A stretch of DNA of 48,530 nt from Acidimicrobiaceae bacterium (GTDB lineage: Bacteria; Actinomycetota; Acidimicrobiia; Acidimicrobiales; RAAP-2), in assembly GCA_003133325.1 (NCBI GenBank), contig PKXA01000099.1, forward strand, positions 1-48,530, in the 5' to 3' direction. This document shows, piece after piece, positions 842-40,260 of this stretch. Within the stretch, counting starts at the first letter, position 1; each line of letters begins with the position of its first letter. The position numbers were made by a program, and so were the translations under genes. Under the pieces are notes generated by a model. That model was given only the letters and a program-made list of their open reading frames with translations. It searched no databases and was not told where the DNA came from.

Positions 842-849
842 AATCGACA

Positions 850-18652: not shown

Positions 18653-18658
18653 TCCGTG

Positions 18659-18799
18659 ATGAGTCGGGCTGCCTTCTACGTTCGGGACATCGCCACCCGT
18701 GTCGGCCGCCGCGCCGCCGAGTGCTACACCGACGTCGACCTGCGCCGAGGTCGACCGCCCTGGCTACTCACGGTCGATCAGGCACTCAGTTCGTTGTAG
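18659..18799 (+). CDS. Short frame after the methyltransferase, possibly a truncated gene
   Basis: Six bases after the methyltransferase stop, an ATG opens 46 codons (MSRAAFYVRDIATRVGRR, later LRRGRPPWLLTVDQ) and runs 22 bases into the 3' end of the convergent epimerase gene. The composition looks like a real protein start. It may be the 5' stub of an operon gene cut off when the inverted epimerase segment arrived; no family is recognised. Confidence 0.3.
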   Translation: MSRAAFYVRDIATRVGRRAAECYTDVDLRRGRPPWLLTVDQALSSL

Positions 18800-19743: not shown

Positions 19744-19919
19744 CCGTTTCTCCCTCTCCACGTCGATTCGACCAGCATCCACTGGGGCTCACTTCAAGCC
19801 TTCCCCCGGTTCTCGCCACTTGGGCGATCACCGGCGCAACCTTACTGGCGAGTGGCCCAGGTGGCCCAAATTCTCTCGTCACCGGTCCCTGGTCACCGGT
19901 CCCCGGTCCAGGCCTGGGC

Positions 19920-21164
19920 TCAGGACGTCAACCCATGGGACGTCGACAGGCACGAACCTATGATGGCTTCGAACTGGTCGGCGGCCGAGCCCGGCGAAAA
20001 CACGGATTCGGCATAGCGCCGGCCGGCAACACCCAGTCGGGTGCAACGGGCAGTGTCGTTGATGAGGTCGGACACGGTGGGCCCGATGTTGTCGCGGTCG
20101 GCGGGGTCGACCACCACCCCGGCCTGATTGCCCTCGAGGATTTCGGCGATGGAGTTGTCGCCGGGGAGGAACCCCACGATGGCCCGCTCAGCACACAGGT
20201 AGGAGAGCACCTTGGATGGGACCGAATACTTGCTGGCATCGGGCTCGAGGATCGCCACCAGGACGTCGGCACTTCCCATGACCTCGGGCAGATCCCGGTA
20301 GGGCTGATAATCCAGGAGGATGAGGTTGTCCGCTCCGTGGCTTCTCTTCCACTCCTCGAGCCACTCGCGGCCTTTTCCTTCCGAGACGACCACCACCCGG
20401 GCGTCAGGGCGCTCGGTGCCCAGGTGCTCGGCGACCCTGGCCAAAATGCCGGGATCGTGCTTCAGTCCCAAGGTGCCTGAATAGAGGACGACCGGTGTTG
20501 TCGACAGCCCCATCCGAATGCTCCACGGATTGACCTTGGTGCGGACCGGGAGATCTTCGATCGGTGCCCAATTCGGGATGATGGTGATGGCCGACTCTTT
20601 GATTCCCCACGATCGGAGTTTCGGCCGGAATGTCGGTGAAATGGCCACGATCGCCGCACTCGCCCGGGCGATCGCACCCTCGATGCGGTCGGCGATCCAC
20701 GCCGGGACCGCGCCCACCGCCCCGAGCTTCTTCCGCGCCGCCGCGCCGATGGCTGCGCTGTAGATGTCCTGATGCCAGAAGATCATCGGGATTCGCATCC
20801 GCTTCAGCCGCAGGGCCACCAGGGCGTGGGCGAGGAGGGGAACATTGCTGAGAATGGCTACGTCCGGGCTCTGCAGCCCGATGAGCGTTCCGACCCTTCT
20901 CCCGTACGACACTTCCTGGGCGATCCGCTTGATGGGCGAATACCGCTTGAATTCGCCCTCCATCGGGCACGGTTGGAAGGTGAGGGTGATGGGATCGCCC
21001 GGCATCGGCTCCACCGCGCCCTTCCCGGTCACGTAGGAAGGACAGTGCTGGTGGGTAACCCGGTGGCCACGAGCGGCCAAAGCCCGGCTCAGCTGGACCT
21101 GGCAGGGGTGCCCCGAATAGTCGTGGACCACGATGGAGAGTCTCGGCCCTTCACCTGCCACCAC
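19920..21164 (-). CDS. GT4-family glycosyltransferase (WcaI-like)
   Basis: About 414 residues from the GTG at 21164; the frame continues to 21482, but the family-like sequence starts only at LSIVVHDYSGHPCQVQLSRA. The N-terminal Rossmann half includes AILSNVPLLAHALVALRL and MIFWHQDIYSAAIG. The C-terminal half shows the GT4 nucleotide-sugar site: VVLYSGTLGLKHDPGILARV, VVVSEGKGREWLEEW, LLDYQPYRDLPEVMGSADVL and PSKVLSYLCAERAIVGFLPG. The pattern resembles WcaI-type colanic acid glycosyltransferases. It adds a sugar to the lipid-linked repeat unit; donor and linkage are unknown. The exact start is uncertain. Confidence 0.82.
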   Translation of the reverse strand: MVAGEGPRLSIVVHDYSGHPCQVQLSRALAARGHRVTHQHCPSYVTGKGAVEPMPGDPITLTFQPCPMEGEFKRYSPIKRIAQEVSYGRRVGTLIGLQSPDVAILSNVPLLAHALVALRLKRMRIPMIFWHQDIYSAAIGAAARKKLGAVGAVPAWIADRIEGAIARASAAIVAISPTFRPKLRSWGIKESAITIIPNWAPIEDLPVRTKVNPWSIRMGLSTTPVVLYSGTLGLKHDPGILARVAEHLGTERPDARVVVVSEGKGREWLEEWKRSHGADNLILLDYQPYRDLPEVMGSADVLVAILEPDASKYSVPSKVLSYLCAERAIVGFLPGDNSIAEILEGNQAGVVVDPADRDNIGPTVSDLINDTARCTRLGVAGRRYAESVFSPGSAADQFEAIIGSCLSTSHGLTS

Positions 21165-21441
21165 CTTCGGCGGTACCGGGCCCACAACCACTTCAGGCCC
21201 CACCCGACGATGTCGACCCAGGTGGGAGGATGACCAGTATTCCCAGTTGGGCGTGGGCAGGTGCCATGTGATGCTGACTTTCGAGGTCGTGTTGGTCGAT
21301 GCCTCCGAGAACTCGGGCCTGACACTGTACCTCGGCACCGGGCCGATCCTCCCGTCGGTGACCGGGTTCCACCGGGTTGGGCGATCCGCCCGACCGACCT
21401 CCCTATTCCGCTTCCAACGGCGCGGCGGGCACCAGGGGCGG

Positions 21442-21447
21442 TAATCT
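21442..21447 (+). promoter_or_regulatory. -10 hexamer for leaderless polymerase transcript
   Basis: TAATCT ends six bases before the GTG at 21454. No ribosome binding site lies between them. The upstream region 21165-21453 is shared with the divergent GT4 gene. Confidence 0.4.
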
Positions 21448-21453
21448 TCGCCG

Positions 21454-22764
21454 GTGCCCACCGGGAAGCCCGACGACATCATGACCGCCTGGTCTCGCAG
21501 GCTGGTCTATGCCGGGATATTCCTGATTCCGTTCACGAGGATCCGCGGCGGTGGGATTCAGGTCAGCGACCTGATCTTCGTGATCGCCATCATCGTGTTG
21601 GCCTTCAGCAAAAAACGGGCCAAGATCGAGCCGATGGCGGTGGCCTGGCATTTCGCCGTCTTCATCATTGTGATCGGTGGCATCGGCGCATCGGTGAACG
21701 CAATCTCCCCGTCTGCCAGCATTCTGGTGATTGCTCGCATGGTGTTCGTCATCCTCTTTTGGCCGTGGGTCATCCGGCACGTCCTGGTCGAAGAGCGGCT
21801 GAAACATCAGGCGATGTACGCATTCGTACTGGGTTGCGCCGTATCAGGCGCGGTGGAGGTACTCCAGACCAAGTTCCATGTACTCATTCTTCCGGTGGTG
21901 GGATCGACGACCGGGCGGGCGACCGCATTTACAATTCAACCCAACGAGTTGGGTGCTTGCCTCGCTCTGGGCATCACGTTTGCCGTCGGTCTGACTCTCC
22001 AACTCGGAGTGGGTAGATACTTCCACCGCATCGTGTCGGTCGTTCTCATCGCCATCGGGCTCATACTCAGCGGAAGTGTGTCCTCCATGTTCGCTGCCCT
22101 GGCCGGCTGTCTGGTGCTTCTGATTCGGCGCCGGGTCAGCCTCCGCACCGTCCTGGTCACCTTGGTCGCGATCGTCGTCGTCTATATGGGGGGGACGAGC
22201 CTCTTGGGTTCAAACTCGAAGAGTCTCAATCCCATCGCGCGCTTCGAACAGACGGTCGGAAACGGGCAGAGCTCCAACACCGGCTCAGCGCGGATCAGTA
22301 CGGACAAAGGCGCTTGGCACGGGATAGTGGATGACCCGGTGTTCGGGCATGGCCTCGATCAGACCTCGAGCATTGTCTACTGGGACCCCTATCTCGGGGT
22401 TCCGTACCAGACTCATAACTTCATCCTGATGATCTGGTACCAAGGGGGGCTGCTCTTCCTGCTCGGATGCCTGGTGGCCATCATTTCGGCGTTCCGGAGA
22501 GTGTCCGGTGTCCGGCGACGAGACCCGACCAGAGACATCATCTTCTCCGGGGCCATCGCTTCGCTGATCTATTCGATGACGGCTCCCGTCATCTTCCAAA
22601 CGTGGTTCTGGCTCCCGTTTGTACTGGCCATGACCTACTCGTTGACGCGGACACCTCCCCAAGCCCAGAGGAGTGCTGAGCGCCCGGCTTCGGCCGGAGA
22701 CCGGCATGTCAACGCTCGTTCCGGACGAGTGACTGCGCTTTCCGTACCGGGCTCGGGATCGTAG
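21454..22764 (+). CDS. O-antigen ligase/Wzy-type polymerase
   Basis: A 436-residue membrane protein with about ten hydrophobic segments. The conserved Wzy_C region is VFGHGLDQTSSIVYWDP, then PYQTHNFILMIWYQGG (about residues 295-335). The GHG and H-N motif before a membrane segment is typical of O-antigen ligase/polymerase proteins (PF04932 type). It would polymerise repeat units outside the membrane or ligate glycan to an acceptor. The tail after residue 400 is hydrophilic and low in complexity. It starts an apparent operon with the FkbM methyltransferase and GT61 genes. Confidence 0.85.
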   Translation: MPTGKPDDIMTAWSRRLVYAGIFLIPFTRIRGGGIQVSDLIFVIAIIVLAFSKKRAKIEPMAVAWHFAVFIIVIGGIGASVNAISPSASILVIARMVFVILFWPWVIRHVLVEERLKHQAMYAFVLGCAVSGAVEVLQTKFHVLILPVVGSTTGRATAFTIQPNELGACLALGITFAVGLTLQLGVGRYFHRIVSVVLIAIGLILSGSVSSMFAALAGCLVLLIRRRVSLRTVLVTLVAIVVVYMGGTSLLGSNSKSLNPIARFEQTVGNGQSSNTGSARISTDKGAWHGIVDDPVFGHGLDQTSSIVYWDPYLGVPYQTHNFILMIWYQGGLLFLLGCLVAIISAFRRVSGVRRRDPTRDIIFSGAIASLIYSMTAPVIFQTWFWLPFVLAMTYSLTRTPPQAQRSAERPASAGDRHVNARSGRVTALSVPGSGS

Positions 22765-22851
22765 GAAACAGCATTGGAAGGATCCTCGCGTGTGTCATCA
22801 TGTGACGATGCACCGCCGGATCGACCCACTGTGCGTGGCGGAGGTCGGTCG

Positions 22852-23685
22852 ATGAGGACCCTGGATGTCCGCCACGCGGCCCATACGTTGAGGCGGATTG
22901 CGCAGACACCGAGAACGTTCTCGAACTGGGCTGAAGTCCTGTCCGACATGGCCCGTGAACGGGTCGGGCGTGGTCCGGAAACATTGAGCTTCGCCGCCCG
23001 CACCGGATTGCGGATCGATTGTCCCAACGTTCCGGGAGCGCGGGTTCCCATCTACGAGCTCTTTGCCGAGGATACCTATCAGCTGAATTGGTTCCTCGGC
23101 CCACTGTTGGAGCGACCCATTCAGGTCATTGACATCGGCGCCCATATCGGGACCTTCGCCTGCCTGCTGGCACATGTCCACACCCGGGCCACCATCCGGT
23201 GCTTCGAACCGTCGCCGACGACGGCCGGCTTCTTACGCCACAACGTGGAGCAGAACGGCCTGAGTAGCCGGATCTCCGTGTTCGAATGTGCGATTGCCGC
23301 GGAGACCGGACACGCGGTGTTCGATGACAACGACGGAGGCAGCGGGACCAACGCCCTGGTCGGTGCCGGTCGTGCGGTGGCGTCGGGGACAGCCACCCAG
23401 GTGGAGACCGTGGCGTTCGATGAGGCAGTGGCGTCGACCTCGGTGCCGATCGACTTCGTCAAGATGGACTGTGAGGGTGGCGAGTACGACCTCACCTATG
23501 GATCGTCGCGAGACAGCTGGGCGACGGTTCAGCGGCTGGTTCTCGAGTACCACGAAGTCGAGGGCCAGTCGTGGGATGAGCTGCGGGATTGGTACGAGGG
23601 TGTCGGATTGCAGGTCGTCAGACATGAGCCGGTGAGCCACGGCCTCGGGACCGCATGGCTGTCCCGTGGACCCATCGAACCCTGA
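22852..23685 (+). CDS. FkbM-family methyltransferase
   Basis: A 277-residue protein. I use the ATG at 22852, preceded by GGCGGAGG at eight bases; the frame extends to a TTG at 22774 without family similarity. The SAM site reads VIDIGAHIGTFACLLA (about residues 91-106), then CFEPSPTT and LRHNVEQNGL. The FkbM signature VDFVKMDCEGGEYD-like block appears as IDFVKMDCEGGEYDL near residue 204. FkbM enzymes O-methylate sugars and other secondary metabolites, so a sugar in this glycan is a likely substrate. Confidence 0.85.
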   Translation: MRTLDVRHAAHTLRRIAQTPRTFSNWAEVLSDMARERVGRGPETLSFAARTGLRIDCPNVPGARVPIYELFAEDTYQLNWFLGPLLERPIQVIDIGAHIGTFACLLAHVHTRATIRCFEPSPTTAGFLRHNVEQNGLSSRISVFECAIAAETGHAVFDDNDGGSGTNALVGAGRAVASGTATQVETVAFDEAVASTSVPIDFVKMDCEGGEYDLTYGSSRDSWATVQRLVLEYHEVEGQSWDELRDWYEGVGLQVVRHEPVSHGLGTAWLSRGPIEP

Positions 23686-23697
23686 GGTCAGCTGAAC

Positions 23698-24915
23698 GTG
23701 GTTCGCCTGCCAGGGCCGCTTCGGCCGTACTTTCCGTATCTGAAGCCCGCATATACGCTCGCAACCCGGCTTGTCGCCCCCGCCTCCCAGCAGGCGAGCC
23801 GACTTCGTGGGGGCTACCTGCCGATCGGGGTCGTCCAGACCATGGAGGAGGCGGCCGCATCGACGGGTGGGCGCTGTAGCGTGGCTCGGCCCTCCGAGGT
23901 CGTGACCCGTCCGGTACCTCCGGGCTTTCCTGCACCCGATCCGGCCTTCGGTGAGAACCGTCGAGAGGTTGTGCCCCGGTTGGCGGTGGCCGAATTGCCG
24001 GGTGGACGGGTGCTCGGACCCCACAGCGCGGTCATCACCGGAGCCGGCGACCTTCTCCAAGAAGTGAGCTTCTACTTCGGCACCACCCGACCTCGTGAGC
24101 ACCCGCTCTTTCTGCACCCGTTTCCTCCTCCACCGCTGGAGGTGAGCGGGCGCCTCGGCGTGTTGGCCTCCCGGGGTGACGTGAATTACTTCCACTTCGT
24201 GATCGACGTCCTGCCCCGGCTGGGCGTGCTGGAGCTGTGCCCGGAGATCGCCCCCCCGCAGTGCTGGTACGTCCCGGCGCAAACCAGATTCCAGCGCGAG
24301 CTGTTGGACATGTTCGGCATTCCGGCGGAGAGGCGCATCGACAGCACTCGGATACGGCACGTGCGGGCGGAATGCCTGGTGGTGCCGTCGCCACCGTCGA
24401 TGACCCTGATCAACCCGCCGTGGGTCGTCGAGTTCCTCCGGAAACGGCTCTTGACCATGCCCCATGACCGCGTCCCGGGGCGGGCTATCTACCTGACCCG
24501 TGGCAGCGGCTCCAACAACAGACGGGTCGCCAATGAACCGCAGCTGGTCGAGATGCTGTCGGCCCGTGGCTTTCAGGTCATCGACCCGGGTCAGATCTCC
24601 GTGGCCGACCAGATTCAGGCGTTCGCGGAGGCATCCGTCATCGTGGCACCCCATGGCGCGGCGTTGGCGAATCTGGTCTTCGCCGGCCCGGGTTCGTGCG
24701 TGGTCGAATTGTTCCCGGCCGGGGGTGTGGTGCTCGACTACTGGAAGCTGGCCAGCGGTGTGCCCGGCCTCGAGTATCGCTATCTGAACGGCCGGGGTGA
24801 CCCAACAGCACGCGGTCTTGCGCAATTGCTCGTCAGCGACATCGAGGTCGATCTGGAGGCCCTGTCGTCGATGCTGGACGAGGTCCAAGGGCGGGAGGCG
24901 AAGCTGCAAAGCTGA
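23698..24915 (+). CDS. GT61 (DUF563) family glycosyltransferase
   Basis: A 405-residue protein with a GTG start 13 bases after the FkbM gene. GT61-type blocks are present: DVNYFHFVIDVLPRLGVLE (about residues 161-179), AIYLTRGSGSNNRRVANE (about 263-280), GFQVIDPGQISVADQIQAFA (about 291-310) and IVAPHGAALANLVFAGPG (about 317-334). In bacteria the family (DUF563 type) adds xylose or other sugars to glycans. It belongs to the polymerase-FkbM operon. The segment 24916-25076 before the next gene holds no gene but may have a promoter: TTGACA stands at 25060-25065, close to the AGGAG at 25067. Confidence 0.85.
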   Translation: MVRLPGPLRPYFPYLKPAYTLATRLVAPASQQASRLRGGYLPIGVVQTMEEAAASTGGRCSVARPSEVVTRPVPPGFPAPDPAFGENRREVVPRLAVAELPGGRVLGPHSAVITGAGDLLQEVSFYFGTTRPREHPLFLHPFPPPPLEVSGRLGVLASRGDVNYFHFVIDVLPRLGVLELCPEIAPPQCWYVPAQTRFQRELLDMFGIPAERRIDSTRIRHVRAECLVVPSPPSMTLINPPWVVEFLRKRLLTMPHDRVPGRAIYLTRGSGSNNRRVANEPQLVEMLSARGFQVIDPGQISVADQIQAFAEASVIVAPHGAALANLVFAGPGSCVVELFPAGGVVLDYWKLASGVPGLEYRYLNGRGDPTARGLAQLLVSDIEVDLEALSSMLDEVQGREAKLQS

Positions 24916-25076
24916 ACGCCCGGCCCCGTTGGTACCGGCCAGCTGTTCCGACGGTGTCGGCATCTCGACCGGCGACCGTCAGGCGTTGTGGCATCGACCG
25001 GACCATCATCGGCAAACTGGCGGGAACCAATTGCCTGAATCTGTCTTCCCAACCCTGTTTGACATAGGAGCATCTC

Positions 25077-26171
25077 ATGCCGATGTGCGTAGTCATAGAT
25101 GGCGTCCCGATCCGCGGGATGAGTTTGGGCATTGTTGTGGAGCACCTGCTCGAGGGTTGGTGCGAGTTGTCGCCGGATGACGAGATCCACCTTGTCATAG
25201 GGCCGGACGCCGAGCTTGTGCTTCCGGCCTCGGTGCAGGTCCACCGGGTCAAGATCGGGCGGCCACAGGTCCTCAATCGTCTGTATGTCCAGAATGTCAC
25301 GGTGCCGCGGCTCTGCCGTGAACTCGATGCAGACGCAATGCTCGGGGTAATCCCGGCCACCACCATCAGCCCACTGCCTTGCCCTCGAACAATGATCGCA
25401 TTCGACCTGCGCCACGAACTACGTCCCGAGCAGTTCACAAGAAAGGCGAGACTCTTACGCAAGGTCAGCTACGAGGTCGGTTATCGCCAAGCTGACGGCA
25501 TCGCATGTATTTCCGAACGCACCAGAAACGATCTGTTTGCGTCCCACCCGTGGCTCCGCAGCCACCTGGTTCGAGTCGCCCTGCTCGGCGCCGACCACGT
25601 CAAGGGTTGGTCCCCCATGAGTTCGAGCGAGGAGTACGCAATCGCCTTTGGCCAGTGGGGCAACAAGAACGTCGACCTTGTTCTCGATGCGTGGACATAC
25701 CTCCACCTCCGCGGCGAGGCACTACCTCTTGTCTTGGTTGGGCTATCCGAAGCGAGCCGTGTGCGGGTACAGGCCAAGGTGGATCGTCTCGGCTTGGGTC
25801 AGGTCGTAACCATTCTTCCGTGGCTGCCGACAGACGCCTTCCGCCAACGATTCGCCTCCGCTCGACTCGTTGTCTTCCCGTCGGACTTCGAAGGCTTCGG
25901 ATTGCCTGCGGTTGAGGCCATGAGGCTCGGGATACCTGTTGTGATCTCGGATGATCCAGCTCTGTTGGAAGTGACGACTGGTCATGCCACTGTTATGGAT
26001 GGCTCTGGTCCCGAAGCGCTGGCCCGGGCCGTCGAAGTGGCCAGGCGCGTTTCACTTGAAGACCTTGCGAAGGCAAAGTCCCACGCCGAAGAGTTCACGT
26101 GGAAGCGGACCGCCGCACAGGTGCGGGAACTGTTGGAGCTCTGCATGGCCGGACGTGACCACCAACCGTGA
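25077..26171 (+). CDS. GT4-family glycosyltransferase
   Basis: A 364-residue protein; AGGAG lies six bases before the ATG at 25077. It has a GT-B layout: N-terminal half with MIAFDLRHELRP and ADGIACISERTRNDL (about residues 103-153), C-terminal half with YAIAFGQWGNKNVDLVLDAW, LPLVLVGL, and the GT4 donor-site motif SDFEGFGLPAVEAMRLGIPVV (about 266-286) with its Glu-x7-Glu. It would transfer a sugar within the repeat unit; donor not predictable. The gene is followed directly by an inverted ISL3-like remnant. Confidence 0.87.
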   Translation: MPMCVVIDGVPIRGMSLGIVVEHLLEGWCELSPDDEIHLVIGPDAELVLPASVQVHRVKIGRPQVLNRLYVQNVTVPRLCRELDADAMLGVIPATTISPLPCPRTMIAFDLRHELRPEQFTRKARLLRKVSYEVGYRQADGIACISERTRNDLFASHPWLRSHLVRVALLGADHVKGWSPMSSSEEYAIAFGQWGNKNVDLVLDAWTYLHLRGEALPLVLVGLSEASRVRVQAKVDRLGLGQVVTILPWLPTDAFRQRFASARLVVFPSDFEGFGLPAVEAMRLGIPVVISDDPALLEVTTGHATVMDGSGPEALARAVEVARRVSLEDLAKAKSHAEEFTWKRTAAQVRELLELCMAGRDHQP

Positions 26172-26520: not shown

Positions 26521-26610
26521 TTTGGTCACTACAGTTCCCGGCAGAGGGGTTTCGCGCTGTCGCCCGACGGCACCATCGAGAGCGGAATCCGAATTCAGGG
26601 GGAGCCCACG

Positions 26611-29726: not shown

Positions 29727-30374
29727 ATGAGGCTGGCGTTCGCCTACGTCTTCGCGTTCGTGCCGATGTCACTCAAGCGGATCATCGCCCAGCGCATCTA
29801 CAAGTGGGACATCCACCCGTCCGCGTACATCGGGCCGAGCGTGCTGACCGTACGGCACGTGTCGATGGGGCCGGGCGCGTCGATCGGTGGCCGCAACGTG
29901 ATCACCAACCTGAACGAGCTCCACTTAGGCGAGGGTGCCAACATTGGCTCCGGCAATTTGATCAAGGGCTGGTGGGACCACCCGACCCAGAAGCTGCCCA
30001 AGCGCAACCCCTCGGTGTACCTGGCCGAGCACGCCCAGATCGCGTCGTACCACTACATCGACTGCGTCGACTCCCTCGAGCTGGGCCGGCACGCTGCCAT
30101 CGCCGGCTTCCGGTCGACCGTACTCACCCACACGGTCGACCTGATGCGGGACAAGTACGTCGCCGGGTCGGTGGTGCTCGGCGAGTACGCAGTGGCGATG
30201 TCGGGGTGCCTGCTGCTGGCGGGGACGCGGATCCCCGCCCGCAGTGTCGTGGCCGCCGGATCTGTGGTCTCGACGAAGCTCACCGAGGAGTTGACGTTCT
30301 ACCGAGGGAACCCGGCTGAAGCTGTGCGGCCGCTGCCGGAGCGGCTAGGGTTCTTCCACCGCGGCGAGTCGTAG
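29727..30374 (+). CDS. Hexapeptide-repeat acyltransferase (first paralog)
   Basis: A 215-residue left-handed beta-helix protein. Hexapeptide-like repeats run from about residue 30 to 185 (AYIGPSVLTVRHVSMGPG, IGGRNVIT, LHLGEGANIGSGN, AVAMSGCLLLAGTRIPARSVVAAGSVV). His at FRSTVLTHTVD may be catalytic. The family transfers acetyl or other acyl groups to sugars. It is about half identical in visible blocks to the protein at 32491-33183, which lies on the other strand. The C-terminal FHRGE motif is shared. It probably acetylates or acylates a sugar of this glycan. Confidence 0.8.
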   Translation: MRLAFAYVFAFVPMSLKRIIAQRIYKWDIHPSAYIGPSVLTVRHVSMGPGASIGGRNVITNLNELHLGEGANIGSGNLIKGWWDHPTQKLPKRNPSVYLAEHAQIASYHYIDCVDSLELGRHAAIAGFRSTVLTHTVDLMRDKYVAGSVVLGEYAVAMSGCLLLAGTRIPARSVVAAGSVVSTKLTEELTFYRGNPAEAVRPLPERLGFFHRGES

Positions 30375-30720: not shown

Positions 30721-30734
30721 GCCCTCATTATGCG
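30692..30734. terminator. Perfect 20-bp palindrome, possible bidirectional terminator
   Basis: Left arm 30692-30711 and right arm 30715-30734 are perfect reverse complements of 20 bases, with only CGT between. The GC-rich core (GAGGGCCATCCC) flanked by ATAAT/ATTAT is terminator-like in both directions. It also contains mirrored start codons, so that both strands can begin a frame with MALIMR. Confidence 0.6.
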
Positions 30735-31124: not shown

Positions 31125-31979
31125 TTACGCGTGCTTGCGCCAGTATGCGCCGAACCCGTCGATGTCCACGATCGGTTCGTCGATGCCGTTGGCCCGGCGG
31201 TAGTCGTGGACAGCCTGTCCGGCCTGCGATTGGTGGCTCCCAAAGTCATCGATGATGCAGAACCCGCCCGGCGAGAGCTTGGGGTAGAGCGCTTCGATCG
31301 CCTGCCAGGTGGACTCGTACATGTCGCCGTCGAGGCGCATCACCGACAGGGCCTCGATCGGCGCGGTTGGCAGGGTGTCCTTGAACCAGCCGACCAGGAA
31401 GTGCACCCTTTCGTCGAGCAGCCCGTAGCGCTCGAAGTTGTGGCGGACCTGGTCGGCACCGATGCTGAGGCCGCCGCGCTTGTGCAATTCGTCCCCCGTG
31501 TCGGCGGGGAACAGGGTCGAGTTCGGCTTGGGCAGGCCTTGGAACGAGTCGGCCAACCACACGTTGCGGGTCGTGTCGCCCCACACCATCAGGTTCGCCT
31601 TCATGAAGATGCACGCGCCGCCCCGCCAGACGCCGGCCTCGATCAGGTCGCCGGGTACGTCGTTCTCGAGCACAGTCCGGACGCAGTGCTCGATGTTCTC
31701 CATCCGACGCAACCCGATCATCGACTCTGCTCGCGCCGGCCAGTCCCGACCGATCTCCCGTAGTTGCGGGTCGTAGGGCTTCTTGTACGCGATCTCGACG
31801 TTGAACCGCGACGCCAGTTGGCCCGCGGAGTTGGCCAGCCGCTTCTTCCACGACTGCGAACCCTGGGTACGGACACCGCCCAGAATGCTGTCGTTGTCCT
31901 CGGCCAGCGCCCCGATCAGGCTCCTCTTGATCAGGTCGAGGTAGAGGGACGATGCCTCGGTGGTGTGGTCGACTGCCAT
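31125..31979 (-). CDS. TylF/MycF-family O-methyltransferase
   Basis: A 284-residue protein. I use the ATG at 31979: TATTGT (31991-31986) lies six bases upstream, so it may be leaderless. TylF-type blocks are visible: MIGLRRMENIEHCVRTVLEN, GDLIEAGVWRGGACIFM (the SAM site, about residues 117-133), WLADSFQGLPKP, and LRLDGDMYEST (as MRLDGDMYEST) with GGFCIIDDFG, whose acidic residues bind Mg2+. Family members O-methylate macrolide sugars, and related enzymes act on surface glycans. A sugar hydroxyl of the exopolysaccharide is the likely target. Confidence 0.87.
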   Translation of the reverse strand: MAVDHTTEASSLYLDLIKRSLIGALAEDNDSILGGVRTQGSQSWKKRLANSAGQLASRFNVEIAYKKPYDPQLREIGRDWPARAESMIGLRRMENIEHCVRTVLENDVPGDLIEAGVWRGGACIFMKANLMVWGDTTRNVWLADSFQGLPKPNSTLFPADTGDELHKRGGLSIGADQVRHNFERYGLLDERVHFLVGWFKDTLPTAPIEALSVMRLDGDMYESTWQAIEALYPKLSPGGFCIIDDFGSHQSQAGQAVHDYRRANGIDEPIVDIDGFGAYWRKHA

Positions 31980-32017
31980 GTGGGGACAATAGCAACCGGC
32001 TGGGATGCAGCTGGAAG

Positions 32018-32450
32018 GGTGTCGCCCTCCACCGACATGGGACCACCCTGGGCTGAGTTCCGCCACCGATATGGGACCACGCTTCCGCCAGTCGTAGGAC
32101 CCCTCCGGGGGTCCCACCTGCGCTGGCCCGCCAACTCGTGCACTCGCCGCCATCGGTCAGCGGATAGTAAGGAGCGCCGACGTCCTCTCGGGAGGTTCGA
32201 GTGCCCGAGGTACGACACCCGAGGTACGAGAGGTATTCCGGCTACTGCTCCGGGGCGAGGGACTGCGGGTGGTGGACGGCAGATGGGTATCGCCGGCAAG
32301 ACCGTCCGGCGCCACGCGACGGCCTCCGTCGACCCGGGTCTCGACAGCGAGGACGGAGAAGACCAGCTCACAGAGGCCTTCATCGCTCCGGTAGGGGAGA
32401 GAATGTCCGGGTCGCATCGGACCGAAGGCGATGGGGCCGCTGTTCGATCC
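32018..32450 (+). mobile_element. IS21-like element, left-end and istA remnant
   Basis: CCACCGAYATGGGACCAC occurs twice (32029-32046 and 32063-32080; one difference), like the multiple terminal repeats of IS21 elements. From about 32200 a broken istA frame follows: EVREVFRLLLRGEGLRVV (about 32216-32270), then, after a shift, MGIAGKTVRRHATASVDPGL (32284 on) and EDQLTEAFI, the usual helix-turn-helix start of IstA. CCCGAGGTACGA is tandemly repeated at 32203-32228. The catalytic core and istB are lost. Confidence 0.6.
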
Positions 32451-32490: not shown

Positions 32491-33183
32491 TCACGGTTGG
32501 CCTGTTGCGACGCGGCGTGAGGAGTCTGCACCTGCTTCCCCCCGGTGGAAGAAGCGCAGACTTTCGGGAAGCGGGCGGATCGGCTGAGCGGGGTTGCCAC
32601 GATAAAGGGTCAGTTCCTCGGTCAGCTTTGTGTTGATCACGGAACCGGCTGAAATGATGGAGCGTTGCGGAACCCGCATCCCACTGAGCAACGTGCAGCC
32701 CGACATGACGGCGGAGCGGCTGCCCACCTCGACTGGGCCCGTCACAAATCGGTCCAGGACCAAATTGAGGCTGTGGGTCAAGATCGTGGAACGAAACCCC
32801 GCGAGCGAGGCATAGTCGCCAAGCTCAACGCGATCCGAGCAGTCGATGTCGTGGGCCACGGTGATCATGGCGTACTTCCCCAAGATGAGGGAGGGACGTC
32901 GGTTAGGAGAGTGTGTGAACCCCTCCGAGGACAGCGGCCAACCCGATATCCAATTCCGGGTGGCGATGCTCGCGCCCTCGCCGAGTCGCAACTCTTCCAA
33001 ATCTCTGATGACGTTGAGCGGTCCAATACTCGCTCCGGGGCCCATCGACAGGTGACGGACGAGAATGACGCTTCGCCCGATATATGCTGTCCGATGGATA
33101 TCCCACCCGAACAGCAACCTCCCCAGGTGGCGCTTGAGTCGCGACGGAAGCACGATCATGCAACATGCCCACACGAGCCGCAT
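32491..33183 (-). CDS. Hexapeptide-repeat acyltransferase (second paralog)
   Basis: A 230-residue left-handed beta-helix acyltransferase, paralogous to that at 29727 (shared WDIH, AYIG, SMGPGASIG, LGEGA, FRSTILTHSLN, TKLTEELTLYRGNPA and FFHRGEA blocks). The start at the ATG at 33183 aligns with the paralog's start. It is divergent from the methyltransferase-ACP-ligase-reductase operon, with about 120 bp between, so both may share a regulatory region. That makes it a candidate to use the ACP-bound acyl group on a sugar; this is inference from position. The last 15 residues are unlike the paralog. Confidence 0.8.
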   Translation of the reverse strand: MRLVWACCMIVLPSRLKRHLGRLLFGWDIHRTAYIGRSVILVRHLSMGPGASIGPLNVIRDLEELRLGEGASIATRNWISGWPLSSEGFTHSPNRRPSLILGKYAMITVAHDIDCSDRVELGDYASLAGFRSTILTHSLNLVLDRFVTGPVEVGSRSAVMSGCTLLSGMRVPQRSIISAGSVINTKLTEELTLYRGNPAQPIRPLPESLRFFHRGEAGADSSRRVATGQP

Positions 33184-33304
33184 ACATCACCCCGTTGGTC
33201 GATGGTGGAGGACCACGCGATCCTATCCACACCCGGCGCCGGGTGAATCCACCCGCGCAGTAAGATATACCGCGGCAACCCTCCCTGCGGCGGAAGAACA
33301 AGAA

Positions 33305-34147
33305 ATGGGCACCGATAGTTCGAACAGTCACCAGCCTGCAGCGCACTACGACCGTGTGCACAGCGCGTGGAGCCTGATCATGGGGGAGGAATTCCACTAT
33401 GGCTACTTCGAGGCCCCTGAGAATCCTCTGGAACGTGCAACTGCGGCTTTGACGGAACAAATGCTCGGAAGGGCTGACATCGTCGCTGGTGACCTAATCC
33501 TCGACGTCGGATGCGGAACCGGGCGGCAAGCGTGCGATCTCGCGGCCAACCTCGACGCCTCCGTGCTCGGGATCACCACGAGCGGGAGCGGCGTCGCGGC
33601 CGCCACCGAGCTTGCGGCAGAAAGCCAGGTCGACGGAGCCCGATTCGAGCGGCGTGACGGGACTGACAATGGGCTCGCAAGCGGGCAGTTCAATGTCGTC
33701 TGGGTCCTCGAGTCGTCCCACCTCATGCGCGACAAAAGGTCGCTGCTGAGTGAGTGTGCACGGGTCCTCGTGCCCGGGGGCAGACTCGTGCTTTGCGACA
33801 TCATCCGCAAGAGAGACATTCCGTTCCTCGAAGTTCGTTCACGCAGAGAAGAGTTCTCCACGCTCCGCGCGGCCTTCGGTGATGCGCATATGGAGCCTCT
33901 GGAGAGTTACGCCTCGGCCATCCAAGAGCTCGGGATGACGGTGGCCGACTGCTCGGACATCAGTGCTCCGACGCTGCCTACGTTCTCCGCGTGGCGTTCC
34001 AACGTCGTGGCACATGAGCCTGCCTTGCAGGACTTATTGGGTCACCAAGGTGTCAACGACTTCGTTCAGGCAACGCACATTCTTGAGTCTTTCTGGCGTG
34101 ACGGGACTCTCGGGTACGGAATTCTTGCCGCCGTCAAGAAACCTTGA
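33305..34147 (+). CDS. SAM-dependent methyltransferase (polyketide-tailoring type)
   Basis: A 280-residue protein. The start region HYDRVHSAWSLIMGEEFHYGYF (about 12-33 of the protein) resembles tailoring C- or O-methyltransferases. The SAM site is ILDVGCGTGRQACDLA (about 65-80), then GITTSGSGVAAA, NVVWVLESSHLM and LVPGGRLVLCDI. ATG at 33305 with a weak GGAAG upstream. It opens a four-gene operon: 46 bases to the ACP gene, which is coupled to the ligase and the reductase. A substrate that is an ACP-bound acyl chain, or a sugar, fits the context. No frameshift. Confidence 0.8.
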   Translation: MGTDSSNSHQPAAHYDRVHSAWSLIMGEEFHYGYFEAPENPLERATAALTEQMLGRADIVAGDLILDVGCGTGRQACDLAANLDASVLGITTSGSGVAAATELAAESQVDGARFERRDGTDNGLASGQFNVVWVLESSHLMRDKRSLLSECARVLVPGGRLVLCDIIRKRDIPFLEVRSRREEFSTLRAAFGDAHMEPLESYASAIQELGMTVADCSDISAPTLPTFSAWRSNVVAHEPALQDLLGHQGVNDFVQATHILESFWRDGTLGYGILAAVKKP

Positions 34148-34193
34148 CGCTCGAGTCACCCTCCGAGCATCGACAATTCGAAAGGACCCCAGC

Positions 34194-34445
34194 GTGGGCA
34201 CGGATCAAAGCAGGGCGCGAGCAGTCATCAGCCAGTTCCTTCAGCGTACGAACAAGAGTGTCGATGGAATGACTGACGACACGGGCCTCTGGGGGGACGG
34301 CCTTGGGCTTGACTCCTTGGAGGCGGCAGAGTTGTCCGCGATGCTCGAGGACGAGCTCGGGTCCGATCCTTTCTCGGCGGGCGGCGAGATGCCGGAGAGA
34401 GTGGGGGACATCTTTGCGTTCTATGAGGCCGCACCAAGCGAATGA
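34194..34445 (+). CDS. Acyl carrier protein
   Basis: An 83-residue acidic protein with AAAGGA ahead of the GTG at 34194. The phosphopantetheine site reads GLGLDSLEAAEL with Ser41 and the usual DSL core. Helix I (ARAVISQFLQR) and the loop (TDDTGLWGDG) fit the carrier-protein fold. It would carry an acyl intermediate as a thioester. Its stop overlaps the ligase ATG (ATGA), so both are made together; a stand-alone ACP paired with its own ligase suggests a dedicated carrier, not the fatty acid synthase ACP. No phosphopantetheinyl transferase is in the window. Confidence 0.85.
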   Translation: MGTDQSRARAVISQFLQRTNKSVDGMTDDTGLWGDGLGLDSLEAAELSAMLEDELGSDPFSAGGEMPERVGDIFAFYEAAPSE

Positions 34446-35821
34446 TCCGTCTGATCGAGGGCGCCGCGGCCGCATCACCCAGCCATACTGCGGTTGTTAC
34501 GCCAGAGGGTTCGACCTCGTACGGCGAGCTGTTGCACGACGCACGGCGCGTAGCCGCTGCGCTTCAGGGCCGGAACATCACGCGATTCGCGATAGTTGAA
34601 CCCGACGCCGCGTGGGTGATCCGGCTCCTGGCCGGTGCGGCCCTCGCCGGTGCGGAACCTTGTCAGTACCAAGCTGATATTGAAGCACTGGAATTTGAGG
34701 AACAGGCGAGAGCTCTCGGACATTCGGTAGTCGTGACCCGACGGCCCGACCTCGGCGGCCCGCTCGAAATCATCCGGCCACAGGAACTGACAGGTCAGGC
34801 GTCTCACCAGATCGTGCAGTCGGCCGGTGCCCAGCCACTCATGATCCGTACCACGGGCACGACGGGGCTGCCCAAGGCGGCTCGTCATGACTGGCAGTTC
34901 CTGGCGCGGACGGTAGCGGGGATCCGACCGATGCCGAACCAGCGGTGGCTCTTGGCATATGGCCCCCATCAGTTCGCCGGTATTCAGGTGCTTCTGCACG
35001 TGATTGCTTGCCAAGCCACTCTCCTCGCGCCCTTCCCGCGACAACCGCGCGACGGCTTGGAGGCACTGCTCACCGACCGCGTGACGTGCGTCAGCGCCAC
35101 TCCCACCTACTGGCGATTCCTGTTGGCCGAAGCGCGGAGCCGCAAAGTCAAGCTTCCACGTTTGCAGCAGGTGACTCTCGGCGGGGAGGCGAGTCCCGCA
35201 GACCTCCTCGAGGAACTCAAGACTTCGTTCCCTGATGCGAGAGTCTCGCAGGTGTACGCGTCAACCGAATTCGGGTCGGTTTCATCGGTGAAGGACGGCC
35301 TACCCGGGATTGGGGTCGACGCGCTCTTCAGCGAGTCGAATCCAACGTTGAATTTGCGGGTCAAAGACGGTGAATTGTGGGTTCGGGCCGTCGCCGGAAT
35401 GATCGGATACGCAGGAGAATCCGGCGCCGACCCGTCCATCGCCGCTGCCGAAGGATGGCAGGCAACCGGTGACCTGGTGGAGATTGTCGGTGAGCGTGTC
35501 CTGTTCCGGGGGCGAAAGTCGGAGGTCATCAACGTCGGGGGAGTCAAGGTCCACCCCCTGCCTGTCGAGGACAGGATCACAAGCCTTGAAAGCGTGGCTC
35601 TGGCCCGCGTCTTCGGGCGTGCCAACCCATTGACCGGAGCCATCGTCGCAGTGGAAATCATTCCGATGAGCGGGTTGGCCGAAGCCGATGTCGAGAGCAT
35701 TCGACTCGAGATCAAGTCGGCGGTCGCCGACCTGCCGCGGGCCTGGCACCCGCGCAGCGTCACCTTTGTCGATGCCTTCGAAACCCGTGGGGAAAAGACA
35801 GTCAGAAGGATGGAAGAGTGA
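34442..35821 (+). CDS. ANL-family acyl-activating ligase (acyl-AMP/ACP ligase)
   Basis: A 459-residue adenylate-forming enzyme. The phosphate loop is IRTTGTTGLPKA (about 135-146), A5 is YASTEFG (272-278), A7 is ATGDLVEI (341-348), the hinge and A8 are FRGRKSEVINVGGVKVHP (355-372), and the catalytic Lys is in RGEKTVRR (Lys452). It is shorter at the N-terminus than most acyl-CoA synthetases. It would activate a carboxylic acid as an adenylate and load it on the neighbouring ACP. The acid is not predictable by eye. Coupled to the ACP (ATGA) and to the reductase (GTGA). Confidence 0.87.
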   Translation: MIRLIEGAAAASPSHTAVVTPEGSTSYGELLHDARRVAAALQGRNITRFAIVEPDAAWVIRLLAGAALAGAEPCQYQADIEALEFEEQARALGHSVVVTRRPDLGGPLEIIRPQELTGQASHQIVQSAGAQPLMIRTTGTTGLPKAARHDWQFLARTVAGIRPMPNQRWLLAYGPHQFAGIQVLLHVIACQATLLAPFPRQPRDGLEALLTDRVTCVSATPTYWRFLLAEARSRKVKLPRLQQVTLGGEASPADLLEELKTSFPDARVSQVYASTEFGSVSSVKDGLPGIGVDALFSESNPTLNLRVKDGELWVRAVAGMIGYAGESGADPSIAAAEGWQATGDLVEIVGERVLFRGRKSEVINVGGVKVHPLPVEDRITSLESVALARVFGRANPLTGAIVAVEIIPMSGLAEADVESIRLEIKSAVADLPRAWHPRSVTFVDAFETRGEKTVRRMEE

Positions 35822-36564
35822 CCGCAATTGAACATCCCCGAGTTGTCCTTATCACCGGTGGGAGCAAAGGGTTGGGTGCCGGGCTCGTAGAAGCCTTTCT
35901 TGGTGCAGGCTATTGCGTCGAGACCTGCTCGCGTTCCAAGACAGACACGGTGCGAGCGTGGGAGGAGGACCCTCTGATCAAAGACCGGTTCCACTTCACG
36001 AGTGCGGACGTCTCTGACTCGGGCGATGCGGACCGTTTCATCAAGCAGGCAGCATCTCGTTGGGGGCACATCGATGTATTGGTGAACAACGCTGGCGTCG
36101 CGCCCGAAGGCGTCATCGGCCTCTTCGGGGATGGACCTCTCGATCAGGTGATTGATGTGAATCTGAAGGGAACCGTCTATGTGACGCGTGCTGCGAGCCG
36201 GGTGATGCTCGCCAAGCGGTCCGGTGCGATCGTGAACATTTCGTCGGTCATCGGGCTCTCCGGATACCGAGGCTTGTCCGTCTACGGCGCGACCAAAGCG
36301 GCGCTCGACGGATTCACCAGGGGCCTCGCCCGGGAACTCGGGTCGCGTGGCATCACCGTGAACAGTGTCGCTCCGGGATACCTGCGCACAGAGATGAGTC
36401 ACGGCCTGGATGCCCAGCAATTGGGTCAGATCACGAGGCGAACTCCGTTGGGACGGCTCGGGGAACCTCACGACGTGGCGCGAGCAGTCCTCTTCCTGAC
36501 AGACCCCGCCAACGACTACATCACTGGACACGTGCTTGTTGTTGACGGCGGATTGACCTGCTGA
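35818..36564 (+). CDS. FabG-like short-chain dehydrogenase/reductase
   Basis: A 248-residue classical SDR. The cofactor site is TGGSKGLGAG (about 14-23), with NNAG at 90-93, the catalytic Ser in ISSVIGLSGY and Tyr-x3-Lys in VYGATKAAL. The final VAPGYLRTEM and GHVLVVDGG blocks match 3-oxoacyl-ACP reductases. GTG start overlapping the ligase stop. In this operon it would reduce or oxidise the ACP-bound acyl group; action on a sugar nucleotide cannot be excluded. The stop lies about 50 bases before an IS remnant. Confidence 0.85.
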   Translation: MTAIEHPRVVLITGGSKGLGAGLVEAFLGAGYCVETCSRSKTDTVRAWEEDPLIKDRFHFTSADVSDSGDADRFIKQAASRWGHIDVLVNNAGVAPEGVIGLFGDGPLDQVIDVNLKGTVYVTRAASRVMLAKRSGAIVNISSVIGLSGYRGLSVYGATKAALDGFTRGLARELGSRGITVNSVAPGYLRTEMSHGLDAQQLGQITRRTPLGRLGEPHDVARAVLFLTDPANDYITGHVLVVDGGLTC

Positions 36565-38688: not shown

Positions 38689-40260
38689 CTAGTAGGCGCC
38701 AATCCCGTTGAGCATCGTCCGCGGTGTGTCCAGCATGATCTTCAGATCCCACCAGAACGACCACGAGCTCACGTAGAGATGGTCCAGGTGGTGCAGGTCC
38801 TCGGTGCTCAAGTCATTGCTGCCCGAGACTTGCCACAGGCCGGTGATACCAGGACGAACGGCAAAACGACGGGCTGCCCATCCGTCTAGTTCCGATGATT
38901 CATGCGGGACGAACGGCCGCGGTCCCACGATCGACATGTCACCCTTCAATACATTGATCAGCTGGGGCAGTTCGTCGAAACGGCTCTTGCGTAGGAATCG
39001 TCCGGCCCGGGTGATTCGTTGTTCTTCGCTCAACTTCTTCCGCACCTCGTAAAGCGGGCGGCACACGCCGGATTCTGCCTTGGGATCCGACGCCTCAGAC
39101 TCTCCGCCCGTGTCGTCCACTGCATGGTCACTGATATTCGTCATGGTGCGGAACTTCAACACGGTGAATGGTAAGCCGTCCCGTCCCAAGCGGGTCTGGC
39201 GAAATATGGCTTTGCCTGAGGACGAGAGTTTGATCGCAATCGCGGTGACCGCCATCACCGGCGACAACACGATCAGAGCCACCAGGCTGGCGGCGACGTC
39301 GAACGAGCGCTTCAACAGACGATCCAACCCGCTGAGGTCAGGTCGCGCCACCTCAACGAGCGGCAGTCCACCCAGGTCGGCGAGTCGGGACCGGAACGAC
39401 ACCAATTCGAAGTACCGAGGAACGAAGGCGATGTGAACATGGCCCTGAAGCTGCCGGTAGATGCCGACCAACTTTTCCGAGTGACAGCTGGGGAAGCCGA
39501 CGATGACCTGCTGCACCTGCAGGTCCCGGCAGAGAGAAGGAAGGTCGTTGACAGTTCCGAGGGCCCCTTCATCGGGCTGCCCGTCGCCGACGACATGACC
39601 CACGATCTCCACTTCGCGCCGAAGGCCCAGGTAGGTCGTGATCCGGTCGGTCAGAGAATCCGATCCGACGACGAGAACCCGAGTGACAGTCAAGGTGTGG
39701 AGCGAAGCCCGGAGGATGAACCGGCCGAGAGCAATGAAGGACACGGCAAAGACCACCGCGACGACATACTGCGAAACGACCGGCCTGGCCGTTCCGGCGA
39801 TTCCATGGATGTAGGTACCGGCAGCCAAGGTGAGGAAGCAGCCGACACTGACGGCGAAGAGGACGTCCTTCAGTTCCTTGTACATGCTCGAACCGAGTTG
39901 GCCGTGATTGGTGCGGTAGGCGCCGCCGAAGGCTATTGCCAGCACCACAGCGAAGGGGTACATGGCGTCGATGGCAAGGTTGCCCCAAAAGTGTTGGATC
40001 GAGTTCGTCGGTACTTTGGACATGACCGACAGGACAATCAGCGCCGTCATCAGCGCAATGGAGGTGCACACGAAGTCGACACCGACCCGGGCGGCGGCGT
40101 ACTGGCCGTCCGAGATGGTGCGTCGTCTCTTTTCGGGACGGATCGGCGACGCCAAGCCTGGGGCGGTCTGCTCCGAAACAAAACGGACAGCTCCCAGTTC
40201 GGGCTCGCTCGTGCCCACGAACGACGAAAATTGCGGCGTCTCCAGCTCAGATATCGACAA
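38689..40260 (-). CDS. Initiating polyprenyl-phosphate sugar-1-phosphate transferase
   Basis: A 523-residue protein of the bacterial sugar transferase family (WbaP/exopolysaccharide type). Four hydrophobic segments and a CoA-binding-like domain (RVLVVGSDSLTDRITTYL, 190-ish) come first. The catalytic part follows: LLKRSFDVAASLVALIVLSP, AIFRQTRLGRDGLPFTVLKF, RTMTN, GRFLRKSRFDELPQLINVLK, GDMSIVGPRPFVP and RPGITGLWQVSG. It loads the first sugar-1-phosphate onto undecaprenyl phosphate and starts the repeat unit. The TTG start at 40260 lies three bases from a G8 tract (minus strand), which may act as ribosome binding site. It is an intact gene. Confidence 0.9.
   Translation of the reverse strand: MSISELETPQFSSFVGTSEPELGAVRFVSEQTAPGLASPIRPEKRRRTISDGQYAAARVGVDFVCTSIALMTALIVLSVMSKVPTNSIQHFWGNLAIDAMYPFAVVLAIAFGGAYRTNHGQLGSSMYKELKDVLFAVSVGCFLTLAAGTYIHGIAGTARPVVSQYVVAVVFAVSFIALGRFILRASLHTLTVTRVLVVGSDSLTDRITTYLGLRREVEIVGHVVGDGQPDEGALGTVNDLPSLCRDLQVQQVIVGFPSCHSEKLVGIYRQLQGHVHIAFVPRYFELVSFRSRLADLGGLPLVEVARPDLSGLDRLLKRSFDVAASLVALIVLSPVMAVTAIAIKLSSSGKAIFRQTRLGRDGLPFTVLKFRTMTNISDHAVDDTGGESEASDPKAESGVCRPLYEVRKKLSEEQRITRAGRFLRKSRFDELPQLINVLKGDMSIVGPRPFVPHESSELDGWAARRFAVRPGITGLWQVSGSNDLSTEDLHHLDHLYVSSWSFWWDLKIMLDTPRTMLNGIGAY

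What the first reader, a model, noticed from the sequence alone, without database searches (positions are those of the whole stretch)
32491..36564. Dedicated ACP, ligase, reductase and methyltransferase operon inside a surface-glycan locus
Seen: methyltransferase, stand-alone ACP (Ser41 in a DSL motif), ANL ligase with all core motifs, and FabG-like SDR, tightly spaced (46-base gap, then ATGA and GTGA overlaps), divergent from a hexapeptide acyltransferase. Known: ANL ligases load ACPs, FabG-like enzymes act on ACP-bound acyl groups, and hexapeptide enzymes acylate sugars. Inferred: the operon makes a specific, possibly methylated acyl group on its own carrier and the acyltransferase puts it on a sugar of the exopolysaccharide. 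I do not know a described system with this exact set, and it has no ketosynthase, so the acid must come from elsewhere.
Basis: partly seen in the sequence, partly recalled or inferred. Interest (0 to 1): 0.75.

Follow-up and report, generated by a model that had tools for sequence, protein, structure and literature searches.

The report
Swappable acyl-making cassette in glycan loci
A small set of bacterial genes appears to load an acid onto its own carrier protein, modify it there and pass it to a surface sugar; the same set recurs in many related soil bacteria with an exchangeable finishing enzyme, but its chemistry is untested.

Summary
MT (33305-34147), stand-alone ACP (34194-34445, Ser41 in DSL), ANL ligase (34442-35821) and FabG-like SDR (35818-36564) form a tight set, divergent from a hexapeptide (LbH) acyltransferase (32491-33183), in a glycan locus. 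It is a recurring cassette: of 52 loci encoding the ligase (window included), 48 have both ACP and SDR within 6 kb, 45 an LbH acyltransferase, 27 the MT; 6 of 6 loci fetched later have the ACP-ANL-SDR core. It is in 53 of 294 sampled genomes of the family of a Nocardioides genome, in none of 60 relatives of the window's genome.
New here: the third enzyme alternates. The core carries the MT, or a PapA-like acyltransferase (15), or a CatB/Vat-like transferase near the ACP (6), MT never with either by the rule used; allowing for kinship this is suggestive only.
Best reading: the ligase loads a non-amino acid, the SDR leaves a hydroxyacyl-ACP, the exchangeable enzyme caps a hydroxyl, the LbH enzyme moves the acyl to a sugar. 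Substrates unknown. New variant of a known kind.

The parts
32491..33183 (-). Hexapeptide-repeat (LbH) acyltransferase, probable sugar acyl transferase; divergent from the operon
   Evidence: Pfam Hexapep 20.7 bits, below cut-off 27; NCBIfam weak hits to NeuD/WcaF-type transferases, far below cut-offs; His137 invariant in an 11-row alignment; a homologue stands next to the MT in 7 further loci (L014, L018, L020, L070, L073, L077, L078)
33305..34147 (+). SAM-dependent methyltransferase of the MitM/RebM kind (ORF opens at 33065; the name RebM for PDB 3bus is recalled)
   Evidence: Pfam Methyltransf_11 4.7e-17; PDB MitM 6.4e-29, 3bus 'Methyltransferase' 3.1e-28, D-glucose O-methyltransferase 3.1e-27
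34194..34445 (+). Stand-alone acyl carrier protein, phosphopantetheine Ser41 in LDSLE
   Evidence: PF00550 24.8 bits over cut-off 20.8; Ser41 invariant in 21 of 21; one of 5 PF00550 places in the genome
34442..35821 (+). ANL (acyl-AMP) ligase, 459 aa
   Evidence: PF00501 91.6 bits; motif conservation in 51 sequences; model mean pLDDT 71.4, Z 28.5-29.9 to the 50 ANL entries shown
35818..36564 (+). FabG-like SDR reductase, 248 aa
   Evidence: TIGR01830 221 bits, below its equivalog cut-off 297.75; best other SDR of the genome is 39% identical
29727..30374 (+). Second LbH acyltransferase, 55% identical to the first
   Evidence: Hexapep 29.8 bits over cut-off 27
31125..32153 (-). TylF-family O-methyltransferase (probable sugar O-methylation)
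   Evidence: PF05711 324.6 bits
36846..38417 (+). Wzx-like membrane protein
   Evidence: no Pfam/NCBIfam/PHROGs hit; 24-29% identity to membrane proteins of related loci, of which L009 and L013 pass Polysacc_synt_3
38689..40260 (-). Initiating polyprenyl glycosylphosphotransferase
   Evidence: TIGR03025 345.3 bits over cut-off 295.55
16224..26171 (.). Rest of the glycan locus: Wzz, methyltransferase, epimerase, GT4, Wzy, FkbM methyltransferase, GT61, GT4 (both strands)

Best explanation
A self-contained acyl-supply cassette for decorating a surface polysaccharide. Step 1 (inferred from family and operon): the ANL ligase adenylates a small carboxylic acid that is not an alpha-amino acid and loads it on the phosphopantetheine of the adjacent ACP. 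Step 2 (inferred): the FabG-like SDR reduces a keto group on the ACP-bound acyl, giving a hydroxyacyl-ACP; the acid is then most simply a keto acid from central metabolism, which would explain why no ketosynthase is needed. Step 3 (inferred, new): an exchangeable capping enzyme modifies a hydroxyl; in the window it is a RebM/MitM-like methyltransferase, in sister loci a PapA-like acyltransferase or a CatB/Vat-like transferase. Step 4 (inferred): an LbH acyltransferase moves the acyl group to a hydroxyl of a glycan sugar. Shown here: the genes, their conserved linkage, the alternation of the third enzyme, and the glycan-locus setting.
For: Linkage: of 52 loci, 49 have ACP, 49 SDR, 48 both, 45 an LbH acyltransferase within 6 kb of the ligase; 6 of 6 later loci have ACP+ANL+SDR (L106 is 91-99% identical to earlier queries, so about five are independent). 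An SDR over E 1e-60 to the window's occurs once in each of 11 genomes holding the ligase, in the same locus. Housekeeping ACP and FabG-like SDR are separate in the genome (C96). Glycan genes in 47 of 52 stretches. Alternation: 0 of 51 rows hold MT together with PapA or with HexC within 600 bases (Fisher 1.8e-11, ignoring kinship), with 11 label changes on the ligase tree against a shuffled mean of 21.1. Members of the three exchangeable kinds modify hydroxyls in named relatives (D-glucose O-methyltransferase, dimycocerosyl transferase, type B chloramphenicol O-acetyltransferase). Ligase pocket: no acidic residue in the A4 segment, Gln177 in 51 of 51, no Pro in the A5 motif in 51 of 51, against the rule for amino-acid domains in PMC11253843. 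Precedents with mutants: vioR and vioM deletions in PMC3927599.
Against: No biochemistry. Allowing for kinship the alternation is weak: 7 independent contrasts, 4-6 opposite, 0 same direction, the rest without difference, median p 0.0625. The 600-base rule for HexC was set after seeing the data; HexC-type genes lie 1.8-3.3 kb from the ligase in L009, L081, L083 and L086, three of them MT loci, and farther off in the PapA loci L066 and L089; the window, an MT locus, holds a HexC-like remnant. Two core loci (L083, L084) have none of the three by this rule, and L079 has the MT without ACP or SDR. Seven of 52 loci have no LbH protein of the four clusters, and L103 and L105 of the later six have none. 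14 of 15 PapA loci also have an LbH protein, so which one transfers is unclear. The one solved keto-acid domain has a hydrophobic Ile at the Asp235 position; here the residue is Gln or Phe depending on the register of the alignment, so a keto acid is not indicated by the pocket. SDR substrate is guessed from FabG likeness.
Confidence: 0.5

Rival explanations
1. Same acyl supply, but the methyltransferase methylates the sugar, not the acyl group, as VioM does in Pseudomonas syringae.
For: VioM deletion leaves a modified viosamine lacking one methyl; the residue is named there as a 2-O-methyl sugar (PMC3927599 passages). Closest structures include a D-glucose O-methyltransferase.
Against: The MT is exchanged for PapA/HexC in the cassette and sits between SDR and ligase in L062, L063 and L108, which fits an acyl substrate slightly better. 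Other methyltransferases (TylF, FkbM) are present in the locus.
Confidence: 0.3
2. The cassette makes a fatty acyl (lipid) chain for a liposugar or a lipid-anchored glycan rather than a small decoration.
For: The authors of PMC4875605 proposed a liposugar component for islands with ACP, CaiC, FabG, LuxE and LuxC. Best NCBIfam hit of the ligase is a long-chain ligase subfamily, far below cut-off (117.3 of 476 bits).
Against: No ketosynthase on the contig and no dehydratase in the set. A5 motif has Ala (46 of 51) where acyl ligases usually carry Gly; that rule and its meaning for chain length are my recall.
Confidence: 0.1
3. Part of an antibiotic or siderophore cluster that happens to lie beside glycan genes.
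For: Closest methyltransferase structures are MitM and 3bus, which I recall as mitomycin and rebeccamycin enzymes; the ligase weakly resembles a 2-oxoglutaryl-ACP ligase model (44.3 of 370 bits).
Against: The set recurs with glycan genes in 47 of 52 stretches; no NRPS or PKS module was named among the 20 neighbour-cluster representatives scanned, though singletons around the cassettes were not scanned.
Confidence: 0.05
4. The ligase makes an acyl-CoA used directly by the LbH enzyme, and ACP/SDR serve another step.
For: LbH sugar acetyltransferases commonly use acyl-CoA (established knowledge); most of the closest PDB ligases by sequence are CoA ligases.
Against: The ACP gene directly overlaps the ligase gene in the window and an ACP is present in 49 of 52 loci.
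Confidence: 0.1

Closest known systems
Viosamine island of Pseudomonas syringae (vioA, vioM, vioT, vioS, vioB, vioR, acp; PMC3927599, 12 passages seen)
   Same: Dedicated ACP, 3-oxoacyl-ACP reductase, acyltransferase and methyltransferase in a glycan locus; product is a sugar bearing a 3-hydroxybutanoyl-type group and an O-methyl group.
   Different: KAS III (VioS) builds the acyl there, an ANL ligase is here instead; an aminotransferase makes an amino sugar there, none is on this contig. No sequence comparison was made here.
Enterobacterial flagellin glycosylation islands with Acp, CaiC-type ligase, FabG, LuxE, LuxC (PMC4875605, two passages seen)
   Same: ACPs (72 strains), CaiC ligases (71, plus two partial) and FabG (71) in glycan islands.
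   Different: LuxE/LuxC partners there; that the three share one island is likely from the numbers but not stated in the passages; no exchangeable MT/PapA/acetyltransferase slot mentioned in them; no sequence comparison made here.
A-KR-T modules of depsipeptide synthetases (keto acid loaded, then reduced by an embedded ketoreductase; PMC4455996 start of abstract in a search listing, PMC11253843 passages)
   Same: Adenylation without the amino-binding Asp, ketoreductase and carrier acting on one acid.
   Different: Embedded domains there, three separate proteins here; product goes to a peptide chain, not a sugar; the Ile/Met signature of the solved keto-acid domain is not seen here.
PapA-type acyltransferases (PF16911)
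   Same: Present in 15 of 52 loci in place of the MT.
   Different: Not found in the window.

Membership tests
ANL superfamily ligase | AMP-binding fold with A3, A7, A8 motifs and catalytic A10 lysine | tested here: met
   PF00501 5.8e-26; TGD, FxGR and Lys452 in 51 of 51, A3 lysine K in the window but varying in relatives; Z 28.5-29.9 to ANL structures
NRPS alpha-amino-acid adenylation domain | Asp at position 235 binding the alpha-amino group | tested here: not met
   A4 segment reads (H/Q/N)QFAG in most rows with no acidic residue; Gln177 in 51 of 51; segment placed by the alignment
NRPS alpha-amino-acid adenylation domain | Pro in the YGPTE motif | tested here: not met
   Ser/Ala/Gly at 274 in 51 of 51
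Viosamine-island-type acyl sugar pathway | Dedicated ACP, FabG-like reductase, acyltransferase and methyltransferase together | tested here: met
   (by family, not by orthology)
Viosamine-island-type acyl sugar pathway | KAS III (VioS) in the island | tested here: not met
   PF08541 and PF00109 matches of the genome are on contigs other than C42
Viosamine-island-type acyl sugar pathway | Sugar aminotransferase (VioA) | tested here: not met
   PF01041 matches on C23, C131 and C71, none on C42; an amino sugar could still come from elsewhere
Viosamine-island-type acyl sugar pathway | 3-hydroxyacyl group on the glycan | not testable with these tools
   needs mass spectrometry or NMR
A-KR-T keto acid module | Adenylation domain without Asp235 plus ketoreductase and carrier | tested here: met
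A-KR-T keto acid module | Ile at the Asp235 position and Met after the A5 Gly, as in the solved keto-acid domain | tested here: not met
   Gln177/Phe178 and Ser/Ala/Gly274, rule from PMC11253843
A-KR-T keto acid module | Domains fused in one polypeptide | tested here: not met
   three ORFs
FabG (3-oxoacyl-ACP reductase) equivalog | Score over the curated TIGR01830 cut-off | tested here: not met
   221 bits against 297.75: FabG-like, not called FabG
LbH acyltransferase | Hexapeptide-repeat left-handed beta helix with catalytic His | tested here: inconclusive
   Hexapep below cut-off for this protein, above it for its 55% identical neighbour; His137 invariant in 11 rows; low-confidence model matches LbH proteins but also bactofilin and other beta helices
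Acyl-ACP-dependent transferase (LpxD/LpxA type) | Uses acyl-ACP as donor | not testable with these tools
   LpxD entries appear at Z about 10 with rmsd about 12; no weight given

The most novel reading that the evidence does not exclude
A dissociated A-KR-T system for glycans: a keto acid is taken straight from metabolism by a free-standing ligase, reduced to a hydroxyacyl on its own carrier, capped at the new hydroxyl by one of three interchangeable enzyme types (methyl, acetyl or a second acyl), and transferred to a surface sugar. The swap of the capping enzyme would give these actinobacteria a modular way to vary the outermost chemical group of the polysaccharide.
Probability: 0.22. Interest if true: 0.7.

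Novelty: new variant of a known kind. Interest (0 to 1): 0.5.

Why it matters
Acyl groups on bacterial polysaccharides affect antigenicity, phage binding and physical behaviour (general knowledge), but the route to many unusual groups is unknown. Here is a compact gene set, found in 53 of 294 sampled genomes of one actinobacterial family, that predicts such groups, names the carrier, and may predict from one gene whether the group is methylated or acylated. It is directly testable in culturable Nocardioides and Pimelobacter strains and would give a genomic marker for acylated actinobacterial glycans.

Tried and rejected
Taxonomy of the window was not pursued beyond kinship counts. Ligase substrate prediction by pocket: only negatives obtained (no amino-acid signature, no signature of the solved keto-acid domain); the model (mean pLDDT 71.4) matches aryl-acid, benzoate, coumarate, fatty-acid and NRPS entries within 1.4 Z among the 50 shown, so it does not choose. 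Hexapeptide model too poor (54.6) to tell donor type. PDB profile search gave 4-chlorobenzoate ligase as nearest, judged uninformative on substrate. Paper searches that gave nothing useful: (36, 37, 38 and 46 returned zero papers); two searches listed PMC4875605; one search gave the keto-acid papers. Promoter/terminator scan: nothing above shuffles. Amino acid (Dlt-like) loading considered and rejected on the missing Asp/Pro signature. Idea that the MT is required: rejected, 23 of 48 core loci lack it. Idea that the set is vertically inherited in the window's lineage: rejected, 0 of 60 relatives and 0 of 395 other genomes of the phylum draw have it (these searches score only a few candidates a genome, so counts are lower bounds). 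My simple gene caller missed weakly biased genes in the window, so 18 window genes were set by hand and counts were redone with tblastn; L020 (contig end) was dropped there for lack of a full ligase, and the truncated L019 was left out of the trees.

Not done: of the 55 ligase matches, one in G556 and one partial in G609 were not read in their surroundings; singletons around the cassettes were not annotated; the SDR was not aligned to solved ketoreductases; no viosamine-island protein was compared by sequence.


Full report
Observation. Families: class I methyltransferase; PP-binding ACP (24.8 bits, cut-off 20.8); AMP-binding ligase; SDR; hexapeptide protein, the last only weakly by Pfam. The surroundings are a glycan locus: Wzz, Wzy, GT4 and GT61 glycosyltransferases, FkbM and TylF methyltransferases, an NAD-dependent epimerase, a second hexapeptide transferase and an initiating glycosylphosphotransferase. 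No ketosynthase match is on the contig and no DegT-type aminotransferase either, so O-acylation is likelier than N-acylation, unless an amino sugar comes from elsewhere.

Dedicated parts. The genome has five PF00550 places; one, on C96, lies beside the best other FabG-like SDR (39% identical to the cassette SDR) and a ketoacyl synthase match, i.e. what looks like the ordinary fatty acid set. The cassette's ACP and SDR are therefore additional copies. In each of 11 genomes holding the ligase, exactly one SDR exceeds E 1e-60 to the window SDR.

Distribution. A genome scan gave 12 loci with a relative of the ligase (two are halves in one genome), best segments 56-77% identical, in Nocardioides, Pimelobacter and actinobacterial MAGs. 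Matches at E 1e-60: 0 of 60 relatives of the window's genome besides itself; 0 of 395 other genomes drawn from its phylum; 53 of 294 genomes of the family of G450, which holds L012 of Nocardioides sp. Root240; 10 of 393 of its class, seven of them already. The window's ligase groups with two MAG ligases (L009, titled Solirubrobacterales, 99/95; then L010, titled Propionibacteriales, 100/97) inside a tree made mostly of that family. Horizontal spread is the simplest reading.

Cassette. I fetched 40 further loci, called genes with a codon model and clustered them, then recounted by tblastn, independent of the gene calls. Of 52 loci with a ligase (window, 11, 40 from genomes): ACP within 6 kb in 49, SDR in 49, both in 48, an LbH acyltransferase of one of four clusters in 45, ACP+SDR+LbH in 44, MT in 27, PapA-like in 15. 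At least one gene of nine glycan clusters lies in 47 of 52 stretches, 44 of 52 without the two least certain clusters. Pairwise identities of the partners correlate (ANL-ACP 0.71, ANL-SDR 0.62, ANL-MT 0.85, SDR-MT 0.86), uncorrected for shared species history. Six more loci were fetched after the counts (the idea was noted of the same turn, before their content was read): all six hold ACP, ligase and SDR; five hold the MT, one a PapA-like protein, none both; four hold an LbH transferase. One of the six (L106) is nearly the same as an earlier locus.

The exchangeable enzyme. Among 51 loci used for the tree, MT occurs in 27, PapA-like in 15, a HexC (CatB/Vat-like) gene within 600 bases of the ligase in 6; MT never with either other (Fisher 1.8e-11 without regard to kinship). 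The labels (with L083 counted as HexC there) need 11 changes on the ligase tree; shuffled labels need 21.1 on average. With kinship allowed for, seven independent contrasts give 4-6 opposite and 0 same-direction outcomes, median p 0.0625: suggestive only. The 600-base limit is post hoc. HexC-type genes 1.8-3.3 kb away occur in three MT loci and L083, farther away in PapA loci L066 and L089, and the window holds a HexC-like remnant (62% over 47 residues to L009). In some loci the exchanged gene stands between SDR and ligase (MT in L062, L063, L108; PapA-like in L066, L087, L089). PapA-like: PF16911 over cut-off in two representatives. HexC: CatB/Vat models below cut-off in one representative. 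MT: MitM, 3bus and a D-glucose O-methyltransferase among structures. Named relatives of all three kinds act on hydroxyls (some on amines), so a shared hydroxyl made by the SDR is the economical inference.

Ligase substrate. Across 51 ligases Gln177 is invariant, Phe178 in 49, and the A5 motif is Y(A/G)(S/A/G)(T/S/N)E with no Pro. By alignment to 4-chlorobenzoate ligase the former is the segment that carries Asp235 in amino-acid domains. PMC11253843 (passages) states that the Asp is replaced in keto- and hydroxy-acid domains (Ile in the one solved keto-acid domain, small aliphatic residues in two hydroxy-acid domains) and that the Pro is replaced by Met in the keto-acid domain. So an alpha-amino acid is unlikely, but the pocket does not show the keto-acid signature either; keto, hydroxy or plain acids remain. 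The model does not narrow this.

Mechanism. Most likely: ligase loads acid on ACP; SDR reduces a keto group; MT (here) caps a hydroxyl; LbH transferase moves the acyl group to a sugar. These steps are inferred from families and linkage.

Known relatives. Viosamine island (PMC3927599, passages): ACP, KAS III, 3-oxoacyl-ACP reductase, acyltransferase, methyltransferase; the reductase mutant loses the modified sugar and the methyltransferase mutant loses one methyl. Enterobacterial flagellin islands: ACPs in 72 strains, CaiC ligases in 71, FabG in 71 (PMC4875605, passage). Campylobacter flagellin carries minor amounts of a di-O-methylglyceric acid derivative of pseudaminic acid (PMC3958885, passage), showing that methylated hydroxyacyl groups on glycans exist. 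I found no description of this actinobacterial cassette or of the alternation in the searches; the library holds open-licence papers only and most listed papers were not opened.

Verdict. Real, conserved, and a new variant of a known kind: a viosamine-like acyl supply with a ligase in place of the ketosynthase and an exchangeable, probably capping, enzyme.

Noticed in passing
window 30466-31113 (+), match in its C-terminal part: Remnant of a HexC (CatB/Vat-like) transferase: 62% over 47 residues to the end of the L009 protein 4561-5214, no Pfam hit for the rest; a third acyltransferase seems to have decayed here.
   Followed up: partly
window 802-3129 and 3287-5665 (+): Two tandem secreted proteins, 62% identical, both with cell wall binding domain 2 repeats (PF04122).
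   Followed up: partly
window 26611-27708 (+): Protein with an IPT/TIG domain (PF01833, 56.6 bits) and repeats, inside the glycan locus.
   Followed up: partly
window 26171-26611: Stretch that resembles a transposase remnant between glycan genes (by eye, not searched).
   Followed up: no
L079 8009-9352 and L088 8030-9370: Ligase relatives (45-46% to the window's) without ACP or SDR within 6 kb, in surroundings that the two share in part; a side branch that may have another use.
   Followed up: partly
window 41929-43419 (-): N6/N4 DNA methylase (PF01555, 141.8 bits) just past the glycan locus.
   Followed up: no
L063 (6016-6261 and 11063-11320), L108 (4591-4809 and 8591-8836): Two ACP genes of the cassette type within one locus.
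   Followed up: no
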